A stretch of 64,000 nucleotides of DNA from Ruania suaedae (lineage in GTDB: Bacteria > Actinomycetota > Actinomycetes > Actinomycetales > Beutenbergiaceae). The first letter of the stretch is position 1. Each line of letters starts with the position of its first letter. The stretch covers positions 434,001-498,000 of the forward strand of contig NZ_CP088018.1 of NCBI RefSeq assembly GCF_021049265.1, read 5' to 3'. Shown piece by piece: positions 40,275 through 50,646 of this stretch. The notes below the pieces were generated by a model. That model was not told where the DNA came from, made no database searches, and saw only the letters and a list, made by a program, of their open reading frames with translations. Made by a program: the position numbers and the translations under genes.

Positions 40275-41783
40275 GTGGTCTCCCTTGCTGCGCGTGCGCG
40301 CCTCGTTGCCTCCGCCGTCGGCGTCGCGATGCTCGCGGCATGCACGAGCGCCGCACCGATGGTGCAGCCGACCGCCGTGAGCGCCCCGGCCCCGGACGGA
40401 CTCGAGGAGTACTACACGCAGGAGATATCCTGGAGCGAGTGCGGGAACAACCTCGAGTGCGCCGAGGTGACCGTCCCCATGGACTACGACGAGCCCGACG
40501 GCGAGACCATCACGCTCGCGGTGAAGGTCTTCCGGGCCACCGGCACGGCTCAGGGGTCGCTGTTCGTCAACCCGGGCGGGCCCGGTGGGTCCGGTACCGA
40601 GATGGTCGAGAGCATCAGTTCCTACTTCGGCGCCGAGCTCCTGCGCAGTATGGATGTGGTCGGATTCGACCCCCGCGGGGTGGGGGATTCCAGCGCCGTG
40701 CGCTGCTATGACAGCGAGCAGCTGGAGGAGTACTACTCCCTGGAGTTCGACCTCGAGACCGATGACGGTTGGGAGGCCTACGTGCAGGCCCTGACCGAGT
40801 ACGGCGAGGCGTGCGCAGCGAACACCGGCGATCTGCTCGGCCACGTCGACACCGTCAGCACCGCGCGCGATCTCGACGTGCTCCGCGCCGTCATGGGGGA
40901 GTCGCAGCTGACGTACCTGGGTTACTCCTACGGCACCTTCCTCGGTGCCACCTACGCCGACCTGTTTGCCCAGAACGTGGGCCGGCTGGTGCTCGACGGC
41001 GCGATCGACCCCTCCCTGAGCTACACCGAGGTCAGCACCGGGCAGGTGCGAGGCTTCGAGCGTGCCTACCGCTCCTATCTCGAGGACTGCCTCGCCGGTG
41101 CCGACTGCCCCTTCAGCGGCACAGTCGATGAGGCGATGGCGCAGACCGTCGACATCGTCGAGCAGCTGCGCGACACCCCGGTGCCCAGCGGAGATCCGGA
41201 ACGGCCCGCCACCGACGCCGACCTGTTCAACGCGATCACGGTGACCATGTACAGCCCTGCCTCCTGGCCCTCGCTGACCAGCGCCGTCGAGACGTTGCTC
41301 GACGACGACGGGTCCCAGGTGCGCTTCCTCTCCGACTACGCACTCGAGCGTGAGGACGACGGCACCTACCCCGAGGACCAGGGCGCCTTCCGGGCGATCG
41401 ACTGCCTCGACTACCCCGTCGAGCTGGACCGGCAGGCCAGCCTCGGCCACGCCGAGGCGAACGAGGAGATCTCTGAGCTGTTCGGGCAGGCACTGAGCTA
41501 TGGCGAGGTCGGCTGCGCCACCATGCCCGTGGGCTCCGACGCCGTCCGCGAGGAGATCGCCGCCCCGGGAACGCCCCCGATCGTCGTCATCGGCACCACC
41601 GGCGACCCGGCGACGCCGTACGAGTGGGCGCAGTCGCTCGCCGACCAGCTCGAGTCCGGGGTGCTGATCAGCTACGAGGGCGACGGGCACACCGCCTACG
41701 GGATGGGCAGTGCCTGCGTCGACGACGCCGTCGAGACCTACCTGCTCGAGGGGACGCCGCCCGAGGACGGCCTGAGCTGCTGA
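40275..41783 (+). CDS. Secreted tripeptidyl aminopeptidase-like lipoprotein (alpha/beta hydrolase, TAP-like)
   Basis: A 502-residue lipoprotein. The signal peptide ends in the lipobox LAAC with Cys23 lipidated. The alpha/beta hydrolase domain has the oxyanion segment NPGGPGGSG, Ser218 in GYSYGTF, Asp444 in GTTGDPATP and His472 in GDGHTAY. The C-terminal block matches TAP-like (mycolate hydrolase/SlpD, SlpE, CaeA) proteins. It likely trims short peptides or esters at the cell surface. Being downstream of holB is a conserved actinobacterial arrangement. The start is GTG at 40275. Confidence 0.92.
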   Translation: MVSLAARARLVASAVGVAMLAACTSAAPMVQPTAVSAPAPDGLEEYYTQEISWSECGNNLECAEVTVPMDYDEPDGETITLAVKVFRATGTAQGSLFVNPGGPGGSGTEMVESISSYFGAELLRSMDVVGFDPRGVGDSSAVRCYDSEQLEEYYSLEFDLETDDGWEAYVQALTEYGEACAANTGDLLGHVDTVSTARDLDVLRAVMGESQLTYLGYSYGTFLGATYADLFAQNVGRLVLDGAIDPSLSYTEVSTGQVRGFERAYRSYLEDCLAGADCPFSGTVDEAMAQTVDIVEQLRDTPVPSGDPERPATDADLFNAITVTMYSPASWPSLTSAVETLLDDDGSQVRFLSDYALEREDDGTYPEDQGAFRAIDCLDYPVELDRQASLGHAEANEEISELFGQALSYGEVGCATMPVGSDAVREEIAAPGTPPIVVIGTTGDPATPYEWAQSLADQLESGVLISYEGDGHTAYGMGSACVDDAVETYLLEGTPPEDGLSC

Positions 41784-41812
41784 GTGAGGTCGCCCACAGG
41801 CGGGGCGCGGTT

Positions 41813-41842
41813 TTGGCGGACCCCGACGGCGGCGGGTACAGT
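41813..41842 (+). promoter_or_regulatory. Promoter of tRNA-Thr
   Basis: TTGGCG (41813-41818) and TACAGT (41837-41842) are separated by 18 bases, a good SigA-type promoter, and the tRNA begins 28 bases after the -10. Confidence 0.7.
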
Positions 41843-41870
41843 GGACGACGCCTCATCGCTGATGAAGCCC

Positions 41871-41946
41871 GCCGCCTTAGCTCAGTCGGCAGAGCGATTC
41901 ACTCGTAATGAATAGGTCATCGGTTCGATTCCGATAGGCGGCTCCA
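41871..41946 (+). tRNA. tRNA-Thr (anticodon CGT), probable prophage attachment site
   Basis: A 73-base cloverleaf plus encoded CCA (41944-41946). Acceptor GCCGCCT pairs with AGGCGGC, the anticodon loop CTCGTAA gives CGT and the T-loop is GTTCGATTC. All phage-type genes of the window lie to its right, so its 3' half is the likely attB/attL core. The second copy should be beyond the right edge. Confidence 0.95.
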
Positions 41947-41958
41947 CCAGGCGATCGG

Positions 41959-41987
41959 CCCGGTTCCAACGGAAAGTTGGGATCGGG
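41959..41987 (+). terminator. Hairpin after tRNA-Thr
   Basis: Arms 41959-41970 and 41976-41987 form a 12-bp stem with two G-U pairs and a GGAAA loop, 12 bases after the tRNA CCA. Likely tRNA terminator. No U tract. If the attachment core lies in the tRNA 3' half, this hairpin came with the phage. Confidence 0.6.
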
Positions 41988-42093
41988 TCGAAGTCGTATC
42001 CGGGCCCGATCTGCCCGAAAGTCGGCCATTGGGTCGGCCATTTGGGCTCGGTACGCAGGGCTTACGCACCGCGCACTGGATAGCACATCGGCC

Positions 42094-42507
42094 ATGATGG
42101 GGCCGATGGGTTTGCAGCGGGAGTGTGCGGTGATCGGGTGCCAGAAGCCGGTCAAGCACCGCGGCCTGTGCACCAACCACTACTCCCGCACCTGGCGCGG
42201 CCTGCCGCTCCTCGGCCCGCCGAGGATGAGGGTGCGATCATGCCCGATGTGCGGCGCCTCCTGGGGCGTCCTGCCCGGCCGGAAGGCCACGGTGTACTGC
42301 GGGCCGCGTTGCCGGCGCCTGCACCTGATCGCCACGCACCGCGCGAGCAATCGAGAGCGAGACGAGCAGATCGTCGCCGGCGTGCAGGCCGGCGAGCTGC
42401 ACAGGGTGATCGCGGAGCGGCTCGGCGTGACCACCTCGACGGTCAGCCGGGTGGCCGCCCGGTACGGGCTGCGCCGGGTTCCCTACGCACCACGTCGCCG
42501 CGCCTGA
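42094..42507 (+). CDS. Small zinc-finger/HTH phage protein
   Basis: About 137 residues. An N-terminal block resembles phage proteins with CAVIGCQKPVKHRGLCTNHY (Cys/His metal site) and is followed by a CPMCG...CGPRC zinc ribbon. The C-terminal region IAERLGVTTSTVSRVAARYG is a helix-turn-helix of the resolvase/Xre type. It may bind DNA near the attachment site. The start is uncertain: ATGs at 42094, 42097 and 42106 are in frame and none has a clear ribosome site. Function unknown. Confidence 0.7.
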   Translation: MMGPMGLQRECAVIGCQKPVKHRGLCTNHYSRTWRGLPLLGPPRMRVRSCPMCGASWGVLPGRKATVYCGPRCRRLHLIATHRASNRERDEQIVAGVQAGELHRVIAERLGVTTSTVSRVAARYGLRRVPYAPRRRA

Positions 42508-42745
42508 GCCACACGCCCAGCGTCGCCCGGCGTAGGTCGTTGATCTCCACGAGGACGTCCCCGGCCGACGTCCACCGAGTCGCCACCGTGTGCAGCTGCT
42601 CGGGCCCGTCGATCTCCCACTCGATCGTGGCCACTACCGGCACGGGCGGGGTGAGCCGGCGCTGTGCCCGCCGCGGCGGTACCCGGCGGGCGTTGAGGAT
42701 GGGCTGGGTGCGGTCCGCGAGCTGCCACCACGACTGCACGGTCAT
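42443..42745 (-). CDS. Small hypothetical phage protein
   Basis: 100 residues. The core segment VVATIEWEIDGPEQLHTVATRWTSAGDVLVEINDLR followed by a GVWLRRGDV end resembles short proteins common in actinophages whose function is unknown. ATG at 42745. Its 3' end overlaps the convergent zinc-finger gene by 65 bases, which lowers confidence slightly. No motif identifies a function. Confidence 0.6.
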   Translation of the reverse strand: MTVQSWWQLADRTQPILNARRVPPRRAQRRLTPPVPVVATIEWEIDGPEQLHTVATRWTSAGDVLVEINDLRRATLGVWLRRGDVVRREPGAARTGRPPG

Positions 42746-42806
42746 GGGACGGAGTGTCGCGCCAGGGGGTGACGCTCGCGGATGCCGACTGGCGCGCCGA
42801 TACGGG

Positions 42807-42812
42807 TAGAGT
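42807..42812 (+). promoter_or_regulatory. Possible -10 of the GAF-Panacea operon
   Basis: TAGAGT lies eight bases before the GTG at 42820, the distance expected if the mRNA is leaderless. No ribosome binding site precedes that GTG, which fits. No clear -35. Confidence 0.45.
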
Positions 42813-42819
42813 GTGACCG

Positions 42820-43743
42820 GTGCGAAGGGGGCAACGTAGTCCGAAGGTCAACCGCGACCGCGCGCCAGGGGATCGGTTTCATGCTTGGCTACTGCCCTCC
42901 GGGGCGGTCGGCTTTGCCTTTATCGCTCCACTCTTCTTGGACCTGTCGTCGGCAAGTGAGACGGCGACGACGCGAGGCACCTACTTCGCCCTCTTCTTGC
43001 TGTTCGGATTGGGAGCGCTCGCGCTAACGATCTGGCAAGGCCTGACATCTTCGAACCGGTCTAAGCGCGAACGTCAGGGCCTCGCAGACTTCAATCACAA
43101 CCTGAGCGACACTCTGCGTGCTGTCGAGAAGTTGATCGACTCAGAGAAGGGGGCCAACGACCGGGCGGACTTCTTCAACTCCGTCATCTCTCAAGCAAAG
43201 GCGCTGATGCCGCTCGCGTCGCCGAGGATCTGTGTCTACGACCTCGAAGGTGCTGACAAGGGTCAGAGCAGTGCAGTGTATCTGCGGTTGGCCGAGTACG
43301 GTGGCAGGGCGGACCCCCCGCGATCAGAGTTCACCAATGACGAAGATTGGGGACGTGCAGCCATCGCTGCCGCCCAGGGCTCTACGATCTGGTGCGTAGA
43401 CGACCCTGCCCGGGAGGGGAGGAGGGTTCAGCGTAATGACGAGGCGATGTGGAAGTCCTTCCTCGCAGTCCCGCTTCGCTTCGATGGCACGTCTCGTGGC
43501 CTCGTGACGATCGACACGGCTCGGAAAACGACGTTCACCAACGACCACAAGGCGGTGGCCAGTACGATAGCGATGTTCCTGACATTCGGGATGCGCAACG
43601 TCGCCGAGGCGGCTGCAGACGTTCGGCCCGAGATGCGCAGTCTGGAACGAGATGCGCGCCTCGCCGCCCTCGTGCGTCGATTGTCAGAGGGAAGGGCTAG
43701 CATGCCTCAGAGGGAGGGAGAGACCGATGGCAACGATCGATGA
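42820..43743 (+). CDS. Two-TM GAF-domain protein paired with a Panacea protein
   Basis: A 307-residue protein. Two TM segments (about 24-45 and 54-73) are separated by a short loop. A charged helical linker (about 78-115) leads to a C-terminal GAF-like domain (about 115-270) with the segments RICVYDLEG, TIWCVDDPAR, FLAVPLRFDGTSRGLVTID and TTFTNDHKAVASTIAMFLTFG. The last two are typical of the C-terminal GAF strand and helix. It ends in a basic tail. It overlaps the next gene by 17 bases. Two 60-base lines I counted here are 58-60 percent GC, against 77 percent in a host line. The domain order (membrane plus sensor) suggests a membrane effector; the function is unknown. Start GTG at 42820. Confidence 0.78.
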   Translation: MRRGQRSPKVNRDRAPGDRFHAWLLPSGAVGFAFIAPLFLDLSSASETATTRGTYFALFLLFGLGALALTIWQGLTSSNRSKRERQGLADFNHNLSDTLRAVEKLIDSEKGANDRADFFNSVISQAKALMPLASPRICVYDLEGADKGQSSAVYLRLAEYGGRADPPRSEFTNDEDWGRAAIAAAQGSTIWCVDDPAREGRRVQRNDEAMWKSFLAVPLRFDGTSRGLVTIDTARKTTFTNDHKAVASTIAMFLTFGMRNVAEAAADVRPEMRSLERDARLAALVRRLSEGRASMPQREGETDGNDR

Positions 43744-44182
43744 TGTCGCAGCCCACGTCCTCGACCACTTCGAGGGCTCCATCTCCACCATGAAGCTCCA
43801 GAAGCTCTGCTACATCGCGCAGGGGTGGTCTCTGGCGCTCCTCGAGGAGGCGATGTTCGACGAAGACTTCCAGGCATGGAAGAACGGTCCCGTCGCGAGG
43901 CATCTCTTCAACCACCACCGTCGCCAGTTCGGAGTCGCGTCCTGGCCATGGGGGGAGAGTGCCAACCTGACCGAGATGCAGTCGTTGGTTGTCGATGCCG
44001 TGCTGCACAACTACGGCGCACTGAGCGGCCTGCAACTGAGCGAACTGACTCACCGCCCGGGCACTCCGTGGAGCAAGACGCGATTGGTAGCCGGCGTCGC
44101 CGACGGCCAGTCGTGCGAAGAGGTGATCGACAAGCGGCAGATGGAAGGCCACTTCAAGGAGTTGCTTCGGCGCCCGAGCTGA
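43727..44182 (+). CDS. Panacea-domain (DUF4065, SocA-like) protein, candidate antitoxin
   Basis: A 151-residue Panacea/DUF4065 protein. Characteristic segments are VLDHFEGSISTMKLQKLCYIAQGWSLAL (about 9-36), DFQAWKNGPVARHLF near 48-62 and LSELTHRPGTPWSKTR near 105-120. The family supplies antitoxins to very different toxins (PanAT systems) and includes the SocA proteolysis adapter. GGGAGGGAGAG at 43712-43722 is a strong ribosome site for the ATG at 43727, while the upstream GAF gene has none, so this protein should be made in excess, as expected for an antitoxin. It lies in a lower-GC island between the attachment site and the lysis genes. Confidence 0.9.
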   Translation: MATIDDVAAHVLDHFEGSISTMKLQKLCYIAQGWSLALLEEAMFDEDFQAWKNGPVARHLFNHHRRQFGVASWPWGESANLTEMQSLVVDAVLHNYGALSGLQLSELTHRPGTPWSKTRLVAGVADGQSCEEVIDKRQMEGHFKELLRRPS

Positions 44183-44261
44183 TCCAAGCAACTCAGTACT
44201 GCATAAGGCCCCCCGACCGACCGTCCACAACGACAGTCATGTGGGGGCGGTGTGGTGTGGG

Positions 44262-44549
44262 TCAGTCGCGCGGCGGCAACTCCTCAGGATCCCCACCTGC
44301 GTCGAGGTACTCGCGGGTGAGTGTGTCGATTTGGGCGGGGATGGATTTGATGCGTGCGCGGCGCTCCTGCTCGGTGAGTACGTCGCGGCGGAGGGTGTCC
44401 AGGTCGTCGTCGGTGAGGTCGCGGAGTTCGGTGGGCGAGGGGCGCTCACCGTATACCTCACGGCGAGCGCTGAGTTGGAAGGACCGGCCCTCCTCGCTGG
44501 TGTAGTGGACCTGGATCAGGACTAGGGATCTCGGGCTCTCGGGTGCCAT
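44262..44549 (-). CDS. Hypothetical phage protein
   Basis: A 95-residue protein beginning MAPESPRSLVLIQVHYTS, with an ELRDLTDDDLDTLRRDVLTEQERRARIK helical region. It is similar in style to proteins found near lysis genes of actinophages, but I know of no function. It lies after the strong late-operon terminator (44619-44660), so it may have its own promoter or depend on read-through. ATG at 44549. Confidence 0.65.
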   Translation of the reverse strand: MAPESPRSLVLIQVHYTSEEGRSFQLSARREVYGERPSPTELRDLTDDDLDTLRRDVLTEQERRARIKSIPAQIDTLTREYLDAGGDPEELPPRD

Positions 44550-44618
44550 GCGGTGAACTTGGCATTCCGGAGCCCCTACCGTCTCGCCCTGATTTGCGCC
44601 TGCCCCGGACGCACGAAA

Positions 44619-44660
44619 ACCGCCCCGCCCAACCCCCACGCAGGGGCCGGACGGGGCGGT
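44619..44660 (-). terminator. Late-operon terminator
   Basis: ACCGCCCCG (44619-44627) pairs exactly with 44652-44660, with further GGGG/CCCC pairing inside the loop. On the minus strand it is followed by TTTTCGTG, a usable U tract. It ends the leftward late transcript after the lysis genes. Confidence 0.8.
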
Positions 44661-44673
44661 GTGGTGGTGCGTG

Positions 44674-44778
44674 TCAGTCTGAGTAGAGGTCGTCGTAGTC
44701 GGAGCAGCGCTTGGCGGCCTCGGCCGAGTCGTAACGCTCAGTGCAGTATGAGCACTCGTACCGCCCCTCGGTGGGCAT
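44674..44778 (-). CDS. 34-residue zinc-ribbon-like peptide
   Basis: The frame reads MPTEGRYECSYCTERYDSAE followed by AAKRCSDYDDLYSD. Cys9, Cys12 and Cys25 give an incomplete CxxC...C site. It starts four bases after the holin stop and is the last gene before the terminator. Small Cys-rich peptides are common in actinophages. It is too short for homology to be certain. Confidence 0.6.
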   Translation of the reverse strand: MPTEGRYECSYCTERYDSAEAAKRCSDYDDLYSD

Positions 44779-44781
44779 GGG

Positions 44782-44994
44782 TCAGACGCCAGGCTCGCGG
44801 TCGATCTTCGGCGCCGGGCTGACCTTGCCGCGAATGAGCAGACCCACGACGATGGGCCCGACAGCGGCGACGACTCCGAGGATGGCGGTCTGCTGCTCCT
44901 CGGTCACGTCGATACCGAACGCAACGAGTAGGGCGAGGATGGCACCAACTGCGGTACCGATGGCGCCGATGATGGCGGCGGGCTCGCGGGTCAT
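44782..44994 (-). CDS. Phage holin
   Basis: A 70-residue protein with two TM helices (about 6-27 and 36-56) separated by a short acidic turn and ending in a basic tail. Length, topology and its place two bases downstream of the endolysin identify a class II-like holin that permits endolysin access to the wall at lysis. Related families: phage holin of actinophages. Confidence 0.8.
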   Translation of the reverse strand: MTREPAAIIGAIGTAVGAILALLVAFGIDVTEEQQTAILGVVAAVGPIVVGLLIRGKVSPAPKIDREPGV

Positions 44995-44996
44995 GG

Positions 44997-46031
44997 TCAG
45001 TTCTCCTTCGCGGTGGTGAGGGTGATCTCGAGGTCGGCCAGCGCGGCCTTCACGGCCTTGTTGATCGCGGCGTCGATGGCGTCAGGGTCGGCGCCCTGCC
45101 CCTTGGCCAGCTCGCGCACGGTCGCCTGGAGTGCGGACACCTTCGCGAGCGCCTCGCCGGACCGGATGGCAGCGAGGCGGGAGTACTCGTGGGCCTTGGC
45201 GAGCTTGTGCTGCTGGGTGGCGGGGGAGTCGTTCACGTAGTCGATCCCGCGCTCGGCCCACACGTCTCGGCTGGCCGCCTGGTGCGCGTACTCGTGGGCC
45301 TTGGCGAGCTTGTGCTGCTGGGTGGCGGGATCCTTCTCGTTCACGTAGTCGAGGCCGCGGTAGCCCCAGACCTCCTCGCGCACGATCTCGCGCAACTGTT
45401 CGATCGTTGCCATGTCGAACTCATCTCCTGTGGTGGTGGGGTTGTCGAGGATCGCCTTGATCGCTCGGATGGATGAGGCGCGGGTGTAGCCGATGCGGTC
45501 GACCTTGCGGGTCGTCCAGGTGGCGTGCTCGAGGTTCATCTCCAGCTGGTGGGCGACGCTGCGCCCGCGACGCTGCGCCCAGTACTCGGTGATCCCCGCG
45601 TTGGCCCGGTCCATGAAGTCGCGCATCTCGGGCGTGTACTGCTCGTAGCCGCCCTCGAACTCGGTGCCCCAGATGTAGGGGCGGCCGTTGTTGTACGGCA
45701 CGGTGATGCCGCCGAGGGTGACCGGCCCGCCGGCGCCGGGGTGGTTGGCCCGCCCGAACGTGAGGATCCGGTAGATGCGGTCGTACCCGCCGTACCCGTT
45801 GGCCAACGGGCCGGGGACGTCGGAGCGGCCGCGCTTGACGATGCCGAGCGCCGGCGTGAGGCCCTGTGACGGGCGGGTGGCGGTGTGGTGGCTCATGTTG
45901 AACTGGTGCGCGGTGTGCTCGCCCCAGGAGCCGCCGGCGCCGGCCTGCAGCTCGATGGAGACGCGCACGCCGTGGCGCTCCAAGCACGCCTTCATCTTGC
46001 GGGCCTCGGCGAGGTCTGCGGCGTACCCCAT
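44997..46031 (-). CDS. Endolysin, N-acetylmuramoyl-L-alanine amidase, with C-terminal tandem repeat
   Basis: A 344-residue peptidoglycan hydrolase. The N-terminal amidase-2-like domain has FNMSHHTATR near residue 43-53 and a GTEFEGG...HQLEMNLEHATWTTRKVD segment, with the zinc-binding histidines visible. After a linker, two near-identical stretches of about 32 residues occur (around 225-256 and 259-289), each with (G)xDYVN(E)xxPATQQHKLAKAHEY. They are presumably wall-binding. A C-terminal helix ends the protein. ATG at 46031 overlaps the upstream stop by one base. Confidence 0.87.
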   Translation of the reverse strand: MGYAADLAEARKMKACLERHGVRVSIELQAGAGGSWGEHTAHQFNMSHHTATRPSQGLTPALGIVKRGRSDVPGPLANGYGGYDRIYRILTFGRANHPGAGGPVTLGGITVPYNNGRPYIWGTEFEGGYEQYTPEMRDFMDRANAGITEYWAQRRGRSVAHQLEMNLEHATWTTRKVDRIGYTRASSIRAIKAILDNPTTTGDEFDMATIEQLREIVREEVWGYRGLDYVNEKDPATQQHKLAKAHEYAHQAASRDVWAERGIDYVNDSPATQQHKLAKAHEYSRLAAIRSGEALAKVSALQATVRELAKGQGADPDAIDAAINKAVKAALADLEITLTTAKEN

Positions 46032-46192
46032 CAGGAGCCCCCGTCCTCGTCGTCGTCGGGGTCGATCGCCTCACCGAGGGCGTTGCCGGCGGCGATCTCC
46101 TCCTCGGTGAGTTCGAGCTCGAGCAGCTCGGGTGCGTAGGTGCCGTCCTTCGGCTCATCGTCGATGGGTGGCAGCACGACAGGGTCGGTCAC
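46031..46192 (-). CDS. Small acidic phage protein upstream of endolysin
   Basis: 53 residues, very acidic (ending EAIDPDDDEDGGS). I place the start at the GTG at 46192: AGGAGG precedes it by six bases, and the ATG at 46210 sits right on a hairpin's tail without a ribosome site. Function unknown. It is the first gene of the lysis operon. Confidence 0.6.
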   Translation of the reverse strand: MTDPVVLPPIDDEPKDGTYAPELLELELTEEEIAAGNALGEAIDPDDDEDGGS

Positions 46193-46215
46193 GGTGTGCC
46201 TCCTGGGCATGAGAA

Positions 46216-46237
46216 AGCCCCGCTCTCTGGCGGGGCT
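46216..46237 (-). terminator. Hairpin between the lysis operon and tail genes
   Basis: AGCCCCGC (46216-46223) pairs with 46230-46237 around a 6-base loop. On the minus strand TTTCTC follows. This partial terminator may set the level of lysis genes below that of tail genes. Confidence 0.7.
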
Positions 46238-46251
46238 CGGGGGTGGGTTGG

Positions 46252-46539
46252 TCAGGCTTCGTCGGTCATCGGATCGGGCCACGGATCGGGCACGATGCCC
46301 GCCGCGGCGAGTTGGCCACGGAGCCGGTGGGCGTAGTCGTCGAGGACTCTGACGCGGGCCTCGGCACGGATCCGGCGGGTGCGTTCGTCCGCCTCCTCCT
46401 GCTGGGCGGCCTCGCGCTCGTCGGCGGCGAGGTCAGCGTTTCTGGCCTGCCTGGTCTTGTAGTAGCCGAACGCGCCCTGGGTGAGCCACCAGCCGGCCGT
46501 GGTGATCGCGCCGCCTGCGATGAGTGCTTGCCATTCCAT
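46252..46539 (-). CDS. Single-TM phage protein
   Basis: A 95-residue protein: one N-terminal TM segment (about 5-25) then a charged coiled-coil region rich in Glu, Arg and Ala (about 30-70). The topology is that of small spanin- or holin-associated proteins in actinophages. No motif assigns a function. ATG at 46539, one base from the upstream stop. Confidence 0.65.
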   Translation of the reverse strand: MEWQALIAGGAITTAGWWLTQGAFGYYKTRQARNADLAADEREAAQQEEADERTRRIRAEARVRVLDDYAHRLRGQLAAAGIVPDPWPDPMTDEA

Positions 46540-46986
46540 TCAGTGCCCCCCGTGTGCCGCGAGCCTCCGGGCAGCGAACTTCGCGCGGATCCGCTCCTCG
46601 ACCTTCGATGCGAGCACCACCCCCCGACCGGCGAGCGAGGACAGGATGGTGACGATCAGGCCGAGGACGAGCAGGGACCAGCGTTGCGGGCCGATGTAGA
46701 CCAGCAGCACGTAGCCGTAGGCGGTCAGGCCCAGGCCAACGAGGGGGATGACGTCGAGCTCGAGCAGCCAGCGGCGCCGGATCGCAGCGACTGCGGCGAC
46801 GAGGGAAGCGGTGATGAGGAGTCCGCCGCCGATGCGGGTCACGATCAGCGCCCACTCTGCGAGCACGCCGCCGGGTGGCCAGGTCAGGCCGATGACGCCG
46901 ACGCCCGTCAATGCCAGGTAGGAGGCGACATGGAAGGCGCGGCCGAGGGTGCGTGCCCAGCGGGGGAGCGGTTCGAAGGTCGGCAT
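46540..46986 (-). CDS. Four-TM phage membrane protein
   Basis: A 148-residue protein with four hydrophobic segments (about 15-37, 45-65, 75-95 and 100-120) and a basic C-terminal tail (KVEERIRAKFAARRLAAHGGH). Possibly an additional holin or antiholin, or a late superinfection-exclusion protein. Function unknown. ATG at 46986. Confidence 0.65.
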   Translation of the reverse strand: MPTFEPLPRWARTLGRAFHVASYLALTGVGVIGLTWPPGGVLAEWALIVTRIGGGLLITASLVAAVAAIRRRWLLELDVIPLVGLGLTAYGYVLLVYIGPQRWSLLVLGLIVTILSSLAGRGVVLASKVEERIRAKFAARRLAAHGGH

Positions 46987-47020
46987 CAGATCACCAGGCC
47001 CAGGGAGTGGCGGGAGGTGG

Positions 47021-47803
47021 TCATCGGTAGCCCCACAGCCTGGCCCTCGGGCTGTTCGCGAAGAATGCCGAGCCGACGTTGGTCAGCAGCTCGAAGGTGG
47101 AGATGACCTCGTTGGTGGGGGAGTTCCAGCGCCCGCCGGTGGTGAAGGTGCGGTCGGTGGTGCCGCCGGAGTTGACGTACCCGTACCCTCGCCATGCCAT
47201 GTATCCGGTGGGGCCGATCGCGCGGGGCGTGAACGTCACTTCGAGACTGCCGGCGAATCGGCCGAGGTATGCCGTCCAGGGAGCGCTCGTGTCGGACTGG
47301 TTGGCGCCGCCGATGATGGTGCCGCCCTCGAAGAGGATCGAGTTGGTGCGGTAGTTGGCGCCGGTGTCGGCGTTTGGGCGGATGCACAGGGGGCGTGTCT
47401 CGTTGGAGAGGACTGTCGCGGCGCCGGCCTCGACCTCGACGACGTACTTGCGCAGGGTCCCGCGGAGCGACACGGGAACGGTGAGGGTGGCGTATCGGTC
47501 GTTCGTGGGCAGACTGATCTCGTCCAGGAGCAGCGACCCGAACCCGATACCGCCGGAGGTGAGGACGTACCTCTCCCACGCGCCGTTGTAGTACACCCAC
47601 TTGGTGGCGCTGGGCCCGGTGCCGGTGAAGGCCTCCATGCCCTCGGTGGGGTTCGGGAGCGCGGCGTCGCGGGCAGCTTCGGACGCGAACCGCATGTTCA
47701 GCCGGTTCGCCGCCCACGTGGTGATCGCGCCCATCTGGTTTGGCCCATCGGGGGAGTCTGTGGGGCTCGGGTACGGCCCCTGCTGAATCGGCTCGTTCGG
47801 CAT
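47021..47803 (-). CDS. Tail fibre-like / receptor-binding protein
   Basis: A 260-residue protein. The N-terminal part (TTWAANRLNMRFASEAARDAALPNP..., a form typical of the start of siphophage fibre proteins that attach to the baseplate) is followed by a Gly/Thr/Ser-rich beta region. It is the last structural gene before the lysis region, as usual for receptor-binding proteins. ATG at 47803 with AGGAGG seven bases upstream. Receptor unknown. Confidence 0.72.
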   Translation of the reverse strand: MPNEPIQQGPYPSPTDSPDGPNQMGAITTWAANRLNMRFASEAARDAALPNPTEGMEAFTGTGPSATKWVYYNGAWERYVLTSGGIGFGSLLLDEISLPTNDRYATLTVPVSLRGTLRKYVVEVEAGAATVLSNETRPLCIRPNADTGANYRTNSILFEGGTIIGGANQSDTSAPWTAYLGRFAGSLEVTFTPRAIGPTGYMAWRGYGYVNSGGTTDRTFTTGGRWNSPTNEVISTFELLTNVGSAFFANSPRARLWGYR

Positions 47804-47827
47804 GCGTTCCTCCTGGGCATGGCTGGG

Positions 47828-47853
47828 ACCCCGACTACGCGTGGCGTCGGGGT
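47828..47853 (-). terminator. Hairpin before the tail fibre-like gene
   Basis: ACCCCGAC (47828-47835) pairs with 47846-47853 around a 10-base loop, between the tail fibre-like gene and the upstream minor tail gene. Partial terminator or RNA-processing site. No U tract. Confidence 0.5.
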
Positions 47854-47867
47854 GGAGAAGGGTGGGG

Positions 47868-48719
47868 TCAGGCGTTCGGCCCGGCGGGCGGGGTGTAGGT
47901 CAGGAGTAGCTGGACCTCGAAGTTCGCCACGTCGGACTCGCTCGCGGAGTAGAAGCCCAGGCCCTTGAGTGCGCCAGACAGCAGGGCGCTCGACCAGGCG
48001 GCCGGTAGCGGTGACGTCGTGGACTCGCCGGGCGTCACAGCCACAGGTCGCCACTGGTCGTAGGTGGCACTCCATGTCGGCTCGACCTCGAACGGCGGTG
48101 CGGTCGTGTAGTTGTGGCCGCGGACGAACGGTGACACTAGGGACTGCTGCGTGCCCTCTTGCCAGTCGAACAGGGCGGGGCGGGTGGACCTGAGCAACAG
48201 GCGCGCGTTCGTGGCGCCAGCGGGGATGTTGATGGTGTAGCCCATGACGTACGCCCACGACGTCAGCTCGGGCACATACGAGGGGTCGTCCGTGTCGCCA
48301 GACTGTGGCTGCGGACCCTGGACCACCTCGAGCGGATCCGTGCCCGGGCTGGGGGAGAATCCGAAGTTTCGCCAGCCTGCGCCGGCCCCACCGCCCGGCG
48401 CGCGGGTCTCGTTGTAGCGCACCCAGCCGGACGACGGCACGACGACCGTCACATCCTGGACCTCCTTGACCAGCACGGCCGAGTTGGTGCCCGTGACCAG
48501 CAGCCCGGACGAACGATCCCAGATGACGTTCACGAGATCGCCCACGACGGGCGAGTACCCGGAAGCGTTCCAGGTGACACCTGACACCGGCTCCTCGCCT
48601 AGGAGGAGCGTGAGAGTCCCCGTGGCCGCGTCGACGGCATCAACCGTCCCTACACGCCACCCAGAGTTCGTCATCCTGGCGAGCATGTCCGCCGTCGCCC
48701 TACCCAGATCAGGGATCAT
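47868..48719 (-). CDS. Minor tail protein
   Basis: A 283-residue beta-rich protein. A short N-terminal helical part is followed by a SH3/OB-like region (GWRVGTVDAVDAATGTLTLLL) and a C-terminal beta sandwich region. Position between the DUF5047-like gene and tail fibre-like gene points to a baseplate component. Its ATG overlaps the upstream stop (ATGA). Confidence 0.72.
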   Translation of the reverse strand: MIPDLGRATADMLARMTNSGWRVGTVDAVDAATGTLTLLLGEEPVSGVTWNASGYSPVVGDLVNVIWDRSSGLLVTGTNSAVLVKEVQDVTVVVPSSGWVRYNETRAPGGGAGAGWRNFGFSPSPGTDPLEVVQGPQPQSGDTDDPSYVPELTSWAYVMGYTINIPAGATNARLLLRSTRPALFDWQEGTQQSLVSPFVRGHNYTTAPPFEVEPTWSATYDQWRPVAVTPGESTTSPLPAAWSSALLSGALKGLGFYSASESDVANFEVQLLLTYTPPAGPNA

Positions 48720-49855
48720 GCGCCCACCTGCCTGATATCACGAGTGCCCATCCCGAAATCGCCCCCCGCTGCCAGGTCGAAACTGAAACTGTCCACGACG
48801 TGCCGCCGGATCGTGTTCACGTCAGACGGGTCCGTCCACAGGTCGATCACGTCCAGTGCCTCGAGAGCGATGTTCGGGACCGCGCCAATGTCCACCGACG
48901 ACGCGGCCCCGGTGGAGCGTGCAAGCTCGGCCGCTGCAGCGCTCCTCGCCTGCAGTGATGTCGTGATCGTGGGGATGCTCATGAACTTGATCACGCGCCC
49001 GTACGCCCCTTCGCTTGGGGAGCCGTAGCGGGTCGGCGAAGTGGGGTCCGTGTCCCGCGCCTGCCCTGACACCGGCCGCGCGCCCGACGCCGGGTTCTCG
49101 CCACGGCACACGACACGGTTGTAGACGCGGTCCCTAGAGGAGGACTGGTCGGCAGAGATCAGCACGCCGCCCGAAGCAACCTTCCACACTGGCGGCGAGT
49201 CCAGGGTGGGGGCGTCACGTATCACGAACCGACCGGCGGCGTCCGCGTACACCACGGCGCCGATCGACCGCGCGATCTGCGTGATCGCATCCCACCGATC
49301 CTCGTCAAACGTCGTCCGCCGAATCCGCCTGTCCTGAGTCGCAGAAGGCACCACCACGAACGCCGGATCCGTCTCATGAATCAGGTCCGCGATCAACTGC
49401 TGCGCAGACGGGCCAGACACCGTGCGCGGGAACGGGAAGCGGTGATCGGCGATCCACGCCTCACGCGAGCGGCCAGTGATCTGCACGCCCGACTGGTCCA
49501 GCAGCGAGCCGTCCACCGCGTCAATCCGGTACACCCCGATCGGCACCCACTCAGTCACGCCGTTCGGGTACACCAGGCCATGACGGAGTGTGATCTCCTG
49601 CCCGTAATGACCCAAAGGCGCGCCCGGCGACTCAGGCAGCGACGGGCGATCCCCGTACACCCCGTCCCGCAACCGGGGCGCGACCAGCAGGTCGCACTCC
49701 CGGCGCGTGATCCGGTTCGAGTCAACCGACACCGACCCGCCCACCACAGGCAGATCCGAGTACAGCCGAACCCCGCCCTTGTCCACGTCAGCGCGGATGA
49801 CAATCTCGTGCGGAGACTGGATCGCCTCCAGGTAGGCGCCAGTGACAGGCCACAT
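48716..49855 (-). CDS. Minor tail protein, DUF5047 type (baseplate hub-like)
   Basis: A 379-residue protein. The segments GAYLEAIQSPHEIVIRADV and SGGVRLYSDLPVVGGSV (N-terminal) and the middle DAITQIARSIGAVVYADAAGRFVIRD block resemble DUF5047-type actinophage tail proteins, which probably form the baseplate hub. Start ATG at 49855 overlaps the upstream stop. Confidence 0.8.
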   Translation of the reverse strand: MWPVTGAYLEAIQSPHEIVIRADVDKGGVRLYSDLPVVGGSVSVDSNRITRRECDLLVAPRLRDGVYGDRPSLPESPGAPLGHYGQEITLRHGLVYPNGVTEWVPIGVYRIDAVDGSLLDQSGVQITGRSREAWIADHRFPFPRTVSGPSAQQLIADLIHETDPAFVVVPSATQDRRIRRTTFDEDRWDAITQIARSIGAVVYADAAGRFVIRDAPTLDSPPVWKVASGGVLISADQSSSRDRVYNRVVCRGENPASGARPVSGQARDTDPTSPTRYGSPSEGAYGRVIKFMSIPTITTSLQARSAAAAELARSTGAASSVDIGAVPNIALEALDVIDLWTDPSDVNTIRRHVVDSFSFDLAAGGDFGMGTRDIRQVGA

Positions 49856-50646
49856 CACGCCCCCTGCAGCAGGTCGAACCAGGTCGAGTTCCCGTCGATG
49901 ACGTCCTGCCACGTGTCGCACTCAGCCAGCACGCCGCCCCACGTCGTGCCGGTGGACTGCACGCCGTAGCCGGCGGGCATGTCGGTTCCCGAGAGGGTCA
50001 GCTGATGCCACACCGGCACGCCATCCTGGAAGCCCGCCATGCCCGGCTGACCGAACTCGACGTTCACGAAATACCAGCCCGCGCGCAGCGAGGACGGCAC
50101 GTCCGCCTCGCCCTGCACGAGGATCACTCCCGCGGCCATCGCCGAATACAGCGCACCCCAGGCGCCCTCAGTCAGCGTGCCCACGGTCACCGTCAGCGAG
50201 TCGGTGTTGCGGCCGGCAGTCTGCGCCACCGCTCGACCACCGTGCACCTGATACAGGCCACCGCGAGTCGTCGGAGTGACGTTGCCGACCGCCCGCAGCA
50301 ACACGCGCTGCGAGAAGTCGGGCTGGCCGGCAACCTTCAACCACACCCGACGCCCCGGCGCCGCGGTGGAGACGTTCGCCGACTCCTGCGCCACGGGCTC
50401 GCCGTACTCGTTGAAGCCGAACACGGTGTACTGCACGGACGTGTTCAGCGGCATCTCGTGATCAGTGCCGACCCAGAAGCCGCCAACGCGCCACAGATCC
50501 TCAGCGCCACGCACAGGGATCGTCGCCGCCCCCGGTGCCGATCGCTCGATCCGTAGCTGCGCCACCGGAGACGGCCACATGCCCCCATCCACCACCAGCC
50601 GCACCGCAGCCCACGACGGGTCGTACGTAGCCTCGAGAATCGGCAT
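49855..50646 (-). CDS. Distal tail / minor tail protein
   Basis: A 263-residue beta-rich protein located directly after the tape measure gene, where the distal tail protein (Dit-like) is normally encoded. It carries alternating Thr/Val/Gly strands and a C-terminal WF-containing end. Both ends overlap neighbours by ATGA-type junctions. Exact fold not certain. Confidence 0.7.
   Translation of the reverse strand: MPILEATYDPSWAAVRLVVDGGMWPSPVAQLRIERSAPGAATIPVRGAEDLWRVGGFWVGTDHEMPLNTSVQYTVFGFNEYGEPVAQESANVSTAAPGRRVWLKVAGQPDFSQRVLLRAVGNVTPTTRGGLYQVHGGRAVAQTAGRNTDSLTVTVGTLTEGAWGALYSAMAAGVILVQGEADVPSSLRAGWYFVNVEFGQPGMAGFQDGVPVWHQLTLSGTDMPAGYGVQSTGTTWGGVLAECDTWQDVIDGNSTWFDLLQGA

What the first reader, a model, noticed from the sequence alone, without database searches (positions are those of the whole stretch)
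42820..44182. Candidate new toxin-antitoxin or anti-phage pair: two-TM GAF protein with Panacea partner in a prophage
The Panacea domain (DUF4065) is an antitoxin module that pairs with many unrelated toxins. Here it overlaps a protein with two TM helices and a GAF-like domain, a partner type I do not recognise as a described Panacea toxin. The pair sits between the attachment site and the lysis genes, runs against the late genes and has lower GC. The Panacea gene has a strong ribosome site while its partner has none (leaderless), as expected if antitoxin must exceed toxin. The membrane and sensor architecture suggests membrane damage triggered by a ligand, such as a signal of infection.
Basis: partly seen in the sequence, partly recalled or inferred. 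Interest (0 to 1): 0.78.

Follow-up and report, generated by a model that had tools for sequence, protein, structure and literature searches.

The report
Prophage membrane-GAF toxin with Panacea antitoxin
A prophage in an actinobacterium carries a two-gene unit, a membrane-anchored sensor-like protein followed by a Panacea-type antitoxin, that looks like a rare relative of a toxin-antitoxin type published in 2023, and its toxin half has relatives in other bacterial genomes that seem to sit beside a different small partner.

Summary
The pair is real. A 307-aa protein (two TM stretches, GAF_2 domain over the Pfam cut-off) overlaps by 17 nt a stand-alone Panacea protein (over its cut-off). It lies between the attachment core in tRNA-Thr and the lysis-end genes of a ~41-kb prophage, against the late genes, with low GC. 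The claim that such a partner is undescribed is wrong: PMC10440598 validated toxFtsL-D9, a TM + GAF toxin neutralised by stand-alone Panacea, causing filamentation and lysis, not depolarisation. Homology to it is untested. New here: (1) two more such pairs, 3 of 290 distinct Panacea sequences, both near integrase genes; one fills a repressor-peptidase slot that our prophage fills with a HipA-like + DUF3037-like pair. (2) Thirteen related membrane-GAF genes without Panacea; ten have a small ORF directly downstream, four of these clearly related. Likeliest reading: toxin/effector with exchangeable antitoxin, carried for defence or maintenance; I favour envelope or division interference over membrane damage. 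No bench data. New variant of a known kind; interest 0.45.

The parts
42820..43743 (+). Candidate toxin: 307-aa protein with two TM stretches (aa 22-40, 53-71), GAF_2 domain (aa 114-255) and a ~43-aa C-terminal tail
   Evidence: ORF; Pfam; hydropathy; tail
43727..44182 (+). Candidate antitoxin: stand-alone Panacea (SocA/DUF4065) protein, 151 aa, ATG start inside the GAF gene's end
   Evidence: Pfam; PHROG 1281 2.5e-33; conserved Panacea residues in the alignment
43710..43722 (+). Purine-rich ribosome-binding site of the Panacea gene
   Evidence: sequence
42807..42812 (+). TAGAGT, possible -10 hexamer 7 nt before GTG 42820 (leaderless start, weak evidence)
   Evidence: sequence; 7 of 55 genes pass the same test
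41871..41946 (+). tRNA-Thr(CGT) holding the attachment core (from 41902); the repeat recurs at window coordinate 82859, in L477
44782..46031 (-). Neighbouring lysis-end genes of the prophage (70-aa protein with two TM stretches; 344-aa endolysin candidate), convergent with the pair
   Evidence: ORFs; partial tblastn similarity of the 344-aa protein to phage endolysins; no Pfam hit to it at E<=0.1

Best explanation
A Panacea-type toxin-antitoxin pair carried as accessory cargo at the end of an actinobacterial prophage. The GAF gene encodes the toxin/effector: anchored by an N-terminal TM hairpin with the GAF domain on the cytosolic side (positive-inside reading, inferred). The Panacea protein, translated from a strong ribosome site inside the toxin gene's end, binds and silences it in the lysogen. 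When Panacea is lost or diverted (infection by another phage, or loss of the prophage) or the GAF domain binds a ligand, the toxin stops growth by acting at the envelope, most likely on division or envelope synthesis as toxFtsL-D9 does, less likely by opening the membrane. Shown: the genes, domains, prophage site, recurrence, and a wider family with other neighbours. Inferred: toxicity, neutralisation, trigger, target, benefit.
For: Domains over curated cut-offs. Same toxin-first pair in two other viral contigs: phmmer with the window protein alone finds the L141 protein at 9.8e-12; pairwise BLASTP 8e-7 to L140 and 4e-13 to L141; Panacea partner 40% identical to L140's. All three lie near an att core or an integrase gene: window ~0.9 kb from the att core, L140 and L141 within ~1.4 kb of an integrase. 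The three toxins fall on one side of a branch (88/96, under the 95 bar; 85% of bootstrap trees). In L140 the pair sits between repressor and M78 peptidase + integrase; the related integrase (45% identity) and peptidase (42%) of the window prophage stand beside a HipA_2 + DUF3037-like pair instead, and a HipA-kinase + DUF3037/DUF1829 pair is a validated anti-phage system (DS-6/HipAD, PMC13092281, passages). A TM + GAF toxin neutralised by stand-alone Panacea is validated (PMC10440598 section 11). Panacea in some members and small ORFs in others of one GAF family fits partner exchange.
Against: No toxicity or rescue data. Panacea with this partner is rare: 3 of 290 distinct Panacea sequences (many loci have only ~1.5 kb of flank or end at a contig end, so neighbours can be missed). 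Homology to toxFtsL-D9 untested: its sequence was not obtained, and 90 Panacea-bearing loci of 98 fetched from the Rhodothermaceae/Chlorobium phylum showed no such neighbour. In the 2023 work 16 pairs were validated and ten additional systems showed no toxicity in E. coli, so a Panacea neighbour does not guarantee a toxin. The structure model is poor (mean pLDDT 51). Homology within the wider family is shown for the GAF domain only (profile-profile); the TM part rests on architecture, and 5 of the 16 proteins, L140 among them, show only one TM stretch over the threshold.
Confidence: 0.55

Rival explanations
1. Ligand-gated membrane-damage defence: the GAF domain binds a nucleotide-like signal of infection and the TM hairpins open or disrupt the membrane, with Panacea as keeper.
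For: TM hairpin plus a domain class known (general knowledge) to bind cyclic nucleotides in some proteins; some other Panacea-paired TM toxins depolarise membranes (PMC8832971 passages).
Against: Many predicted TM toxins of that study are described as small peptides, unlike this 307-aa protein; the validated TM + GAF toxin did not act by depolarisation. I recognised no signal synthase among the ORFs of 41000-50000 (by eye; these ORFs were not all domain-scanned). Nothing in the sequence names a ligand.
Confidence: 0.2
2. Not a toxin: a membrane GAF sensor (signalling or stress) whose activity is modulated by a small partner; Panacea is just one regulator.
For: Some relatives lie beside ordinary-looking genes (for example L230 near genes resembling NAD synthetase, a transporter and panB, names by eye); no other effector domain is found in the window protein.
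Against: Sporadic: 7 of 297 genomes of the order, none of the seven other genus members searched; Panacea's described role is neutralising toxins.
Confidence: 0.18
3. Chance neighbours: an isolated GAF gene and an unrelated Panacea gene left together in a prophage cargo region.
For: Pair rare; the window GAF protein has no match at E<=0.01 in the phage and plasmid collections.
Against: Same order, orientation and close spacing in two independent contigs with diverged sequences; 17-nt overlap in the window.
Confidence: 0.04

Closest known systems
toxFtsL-D9 : PanA of Gelidibacter mesophilus (NetFlax node D9), PMC10440598
   Same: Toxin of similar size (281 vs 307 aa) with TM helices, an alpha-helical stretch and a GAF domain; partner a stand-alone Panacea protein (section 11 read)
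   Different: Host (Gelidibacter vs an actinobacterium's prophage); sequence homology not tested; no FtsL family among Pfam matches of ours at E<=1; number of TM helices in D9 not stated in the text read
Panacea (DUF4065/SocA) toxin-antitoxin systems, PanAT, PMC8832971 and PMC10440598
   Same: Panacea domain over cut-off, two-gene unit; members occur in phages too
   Different: Toxin type rare; no experimental validation here
HipAD / DS-6 anti-phage pair (HipA-family kinase + DUF3037/DUF1829 protein), PMC13092281 passages
   Same: A HipA_2 + DUF3037-like pair fills, in the window's prophage, the slot that holds GAF-Panacea in contig L140
   Different: No homology to the GAF-Panacea pair is claimed; only a positional analogy; the DUF3037 match is just under its cut-off (20.4 vs 22.6 bits)
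Actinobacterial TM-GAF proteins with a small downstream ORF (no name found by me)
   Same: N-terminal TM stretch(es) and a GAF domain of the same subfamily
   Different: No Panacea neighbour; a 50-69-aa, mostly basic product instead

Membership tests
Panacea toxin-antitoxin (PanAT) | Panacea domain in the antitoxin over the curated cut-off | tested here: met
   60.5 bits vs 25.7
Panacea toxin-antitoxin (PanAT) | Adjacent or overlapping two-gene unit | tested here: met
   17-nt overlap
Panacea toxin-antitoxin (PanAT) | Pair conserved in at least 2 (mininode) or 8 (main node) representative genomes, the NetFlax criteria | tested here: inconclusive
   Three distinct pairs found, two of them on viral contigs: the lower bar is reached if viral contigs are counted, the higher is not
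Panacea toxin-antitoxin (PanAT) | Toxicity relieved by the Panacea protein; direct complex | not testable with these tools
   Bench work needed; no complex was modelled
toxFtsL-D9 | TM helices + alpha-helical region + GAF, with stand-alone Panacea | tested here: met
   helix 49-111 only in a low-confidence model
toxFtsL-D9 | Sequence homology to the D9 cluster | not tested
   D9 sequences not obtained; 90 Panacea-bearing loci of the Rhodothermaceae/Chlorobium phylum gave no A3-type neighbour
toxFtsL-D9 | Partial FtsL homology | tested here: inconclusive
   No FtsL family among Pfam matches at E<=1; the published FtsL similarity is itself called partial
toxFtsL-D9 | Slow toxicity, filamentation, no depolarisation | not testable with these tools
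   Bench work needed
Known anti-phage systems in PADLOC-DB 2.0.0 | Match to any model | tested here: not met
   0 families for both proteins at E<=1

The most novel reading that the evidence does not exclude
TM-GAF proteins form an unnamed actinobacterial family of ligand-sensing membrane effectors with interchangeable keepers: a 50-69-aa mostly basic protein in bacterial genomes, Panacea in prophages. Phages have re-armed (or hosts have tamed) one effector with a different antitoxin, and the GAF pocket is where an infection or stress signal would be read.
Probability: 0.3. Interest if true: 0.68.

Novelty: new variant of a known kind. Interest (0 to 1): 0.45.

Why it matters
If the pair is active, it brings the TM-GAF + Panacea toxin type, described from one Gelidibacter system, into actinobacterial prophages. 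It would also give a family in which one toxin scaffold is kept by Panacea in phages and apparently by a small unrelated protein elsewhere: a direct test bed for how antitoxins are exchanged and for whether Panacea or the toxin's own GAF domain senses the trigger.

Tried and rejected
Led nowhere: tblastn of the GAF protein against phages (no match even at E 10) and plasmids (none at E 0.01; five unconvincing records at E 10); scans of viral and genome contigs with it and of viral contigs with alignment A2: candidates, none confirmed. Phylum sample with the single protein: 11 of 396 genomes including the own one; the other ten are weak (E 0.001-0.009). PADLOC and NCBIfam at E<=1: nothing for the GAF protein. 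Search for a D9 relative in the Rhodothermaceae/Chlorobium phylum (Bacteroidota by my inference): nothing; I fetched 98 loci, a part of the places listed. Solved structures: only generic GAF matches (best 4.8e-4) and nothing for the Panacea protein (best E 0.89). The AlphaFold model from 3 sequences is too poor to search folds with, so no fold search was run; the deeper alignment A3 holds genome loci that the tool's description excludes, so it was not sent.

Considered and dropped: that a C-terminal tail marks Panacea-partnered toxins. Tails are 20-43 aa in the three Panacea types, but 42 aa in L234/L235 and 15-30 aa in L473-L475. That the small downstream ORF is a VbhA-type antitoxin: one of eight products hits VbhA at 0.0024, under the cut-off.

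Weak points of the small-ORF claim: a crude gate (start -30..+60 nt, 45-110 aa, coding-like GC) is passed by 12 of 13 non-Panacea genes and by 11 of 90 other genes of the same loci. The control first printed (20 of 99) wrongly held nine of the GAF genes themselves; one search takes them out. Two of the twelve (L235, L476) I do not believe, giving ten. Only L229-L232 are clearly related (E 1e-11 to 1e-23), L233-L474 weakly (5e-5); the others show nothing better than about 7e-4 (L237 with L230), in a set of eleven sequences. 'Basic' holds for most: net charge +3 to +10 for nine of the ten, +1 for L473. L476 has a convergent ORF with a weakly similar motif.

The A3 profile was built from 11 of the 16 proteins it then recognises, so its high scores for them are circular. 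The non-circular support is A2 (the three Panacea types): its six best matches besides the own one all have N-terminal TM stretch(es) and a GAF domain; of its 19 matching genomes ten (own included) are of this kind and nine are generic or unresolved. 'Two TM' holds by threshold for 11 of the 16 proteins, one stretch for 5.

Full report
WHAT IS THERE. The window holds, on the + strand, a 307-aa ORF from GTG 42820 to 43743 and a Panacea ORF ending at 44182. The first has two TM stretches (aa 22-40 and 53-71) and a GAF_2 domain over the Pfam cut-off; the second is a Panacea (SocA/DUF4065) protein over its cut-off. A purine-rich ribosome site stands before ATG 43727, which I take as the Panacea start; the genes then overlap by 17 nt. 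The Panacea match covers residues 24-115 of the 151 and no other Pfam family is matched at E<=1, so I call it stand-alone. The GAF gene has no Shine-Dalgarno-like word and a TAGAGT 7 nt upstream of its GTG; a leaderless start is possible, but the same hexamer test is passed by 7 of 55 predicted genes of the window.

SETTING. The window ends inside a prophage. In the next 20 kb of the contig the tRNA-Thr arm from 41902 recurs at window coordinate 82859 (18 bases exact, ~44 imperfect), next to a tyrosine integrase. The prophage is thus about 41 kb; the pair lies at the end opposite the integrase, between the att core and the lysis-end genes, running against the late genes. GC is 0.618/0.625 for the pair, 0.683 for the prophage, 0.724 for the host part. 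Over 3-7% of a 19.8-kb stretch, in head genes, the best listed DNA matches are Arthrobacter and Microbacterium phages (72-78% identity), so the host is an actinobacterium (inference). Arthrobacter phage Elesar, one of these, has a counter-transcribed 'membrane protein' gene between late genes and integrase.

RELATIVES OF THE PAIR. The GAF protein alone finds nothing convincing in phages, plasmids, viral or genome contigs, 98 other near genomes or a phylum sample. I therefore went through Panacea: 412 of the 507 loci held contain a Panacea ORF, 290 distinct Panacea sequences in all. Three have a GAF protein of this kind next to them: the window's, L141 and L140, the last two from IMG/VR contigs. 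Many loci have only ~1.5 kb of flank or end at a contig end, so neighbours can be missed. Order (toxin first), orientation and close spacing agree in the three, while the GAF proteins are only about a quarter identical over the aligned part (BLASTP 8e-7 and 4e-13). In L140 the pair lies between an HTH repressor, whose stop overlaps the GAF start, and an M78 peptidase followed by an integrase; in L141 an integrase lies ~1.4 kb past the Panacea gene. The integrase and peptidase of L140 are 45% and 42% identical to those of the window's prophage, which has a HipA_2 kinase + DUF3037-like pair in that slot (the DUF3037 match is just under its cut-off). A HipA-kinase + DUF3037/DUF1829 pair, DS-6 or HipAD, is reported as a validated anti-phage system (PMC13092281, passages seen). 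The slot thus looks like a place for exchangeable toxin-type cargo; this rests on two prophages.

RELATIVES OF THE GAF PROTEIN. A profile of the three Panacea-partnered proteins (A2) was searched in 394 genomes of the class; 19 had a match at E<=0.001, ten of them (own included) TM-GAF proteins of this kind and nine generic or unresolved; the six best besides the own one were TM-GAF proteins. With the wider profile A3, 7 of 297 genomes of the order (own included) match at E<=1e-10, and 2 of 5 of one family. In all 16 distinct proteins of this kind are held: three with Panacea, thirteen without; 11 of 16 show two N-terminal hydrophobic stretches over the threshold and 5 show one. Ten of the thirteen have a believable small ORF (50-69 aa from the likeliest start, net charge +1 to +10) that starts close to the GAF stop (28 nt before to about 50 nt after it, or at a later in-frame start). 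By a crude gate 12 of 13 pass against 11 of 90 other genes of the same loci. Four of the small products (L229-L232) are clearly related, L233 and L474 weakly. Whether the thirteen genes are chromosomal was not established; L476 lies among genes that look like plasmid mobilisation genes (by eye). The Panacea-partnered proteins fall on one side of a branch (88/96, under the 95 bar, long branches). Profile-profile comparison of A2 with nine of the others (A6) gives 98.8% probability, over the GAF domain only.

HOW IT LIKELY WORKS. I read the GAF protein as toxin/effector and Panacea as its keeper. The N-terminus and the stretch after TM2 are rich in arginine and lysine, which puts the GAF domain in the cytosol (inference). 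A model from three sequences (mean pLDDT 51) shows one helix from residue 49 to 111 and a GAF-like sheet; too poor to build on. The tested toxin of this architecture, toxFtsL-D9 of Gelidibacter mesophilus, is neutralised by stand-alone Panacea, acts slowly, causes filamentation, FtsZ delocalisation and suspected lysis, and its effect was reported not to come from partial depolarisation (PMC10440598, section 11 read). Some other TM toxins paired with Panacea do depolarise (PMC8832971, passages). So envelope or division interference and membrane damage are both open; I favour the first. The authors of PMC10440598 suggest that Panacea may act as the sensor (abstract passage); the GAF pocket is the other candidate.

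WHAT IS KNOWN AND WHAT IS NEW. A TM + GAF toxin kept by Panacea is in print; the word toxFtsL occurs in one paper of the library, and searches with GAF and Panacea terms list the same paper first. I could not obtain a D9 sequence: of 98 loci fetched from the phylum of a Rhodothermaceae and a Chlorobium genome, 90 hold a Panacea hit and none an A3-type neighbour, so membership in D9 is untested and I do not claim it. What I did not find described, within the searches only, is the actinobacterial TM-GAF family with small downstream partners and its Panacea-partnered branch in prophages. I made no literature search for the small proteins themselves.

LIMITS. I have no toxicity, rescue or phage data. 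The profile A3 is circular for the proteins in it. Gene calls in fetched loci are simple ORF and GC3 calls.

Noticed in passing
L477 15496-17000 (window coordinates 79496-81000): HipA_2 kinase-like gene overlapping a DUF3037-like gene in the immunity region of the same prophage, resembling the DS-6/HipAD anti-phage pair.
   Followed up: partly
L229-L233, L236, L237, L473-L475: Small, mostly basic 50-69-aa ORF directly downstream of TM-GAF genes without Panacea; one of eight products scanned has a sub-threshold VbhA match.
   Followed up: partly
L019 2077-3983: The phage record listed first for the window's Panacea protein (47% identity) has no GAF-type neighbour; a 238-aa one-TM gene lies upstream and a 178-aa ORF downstream.
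   Followed up: no
41977-42507 (+): 176-aa ORF just inside the att core with cysteine pairs and a helix-turn-helix-like end, possible small phage regulator (by eye).
   Followed up: no
L507 7954-9468 (Arthrobacter phage Elesar): A 505-aa-sized counter-transcribed 'membrane protein' gene sits between late genes and integrase, a place like that of the window's pair.
   Followed up: no
L476 4095-8631: A TM-GAF gene lies among ORFs that look (by eye) like plasmid mobilisation and replication genes, so at least one Panacea-free relative may be plasmid-borne.
   Followed up: no
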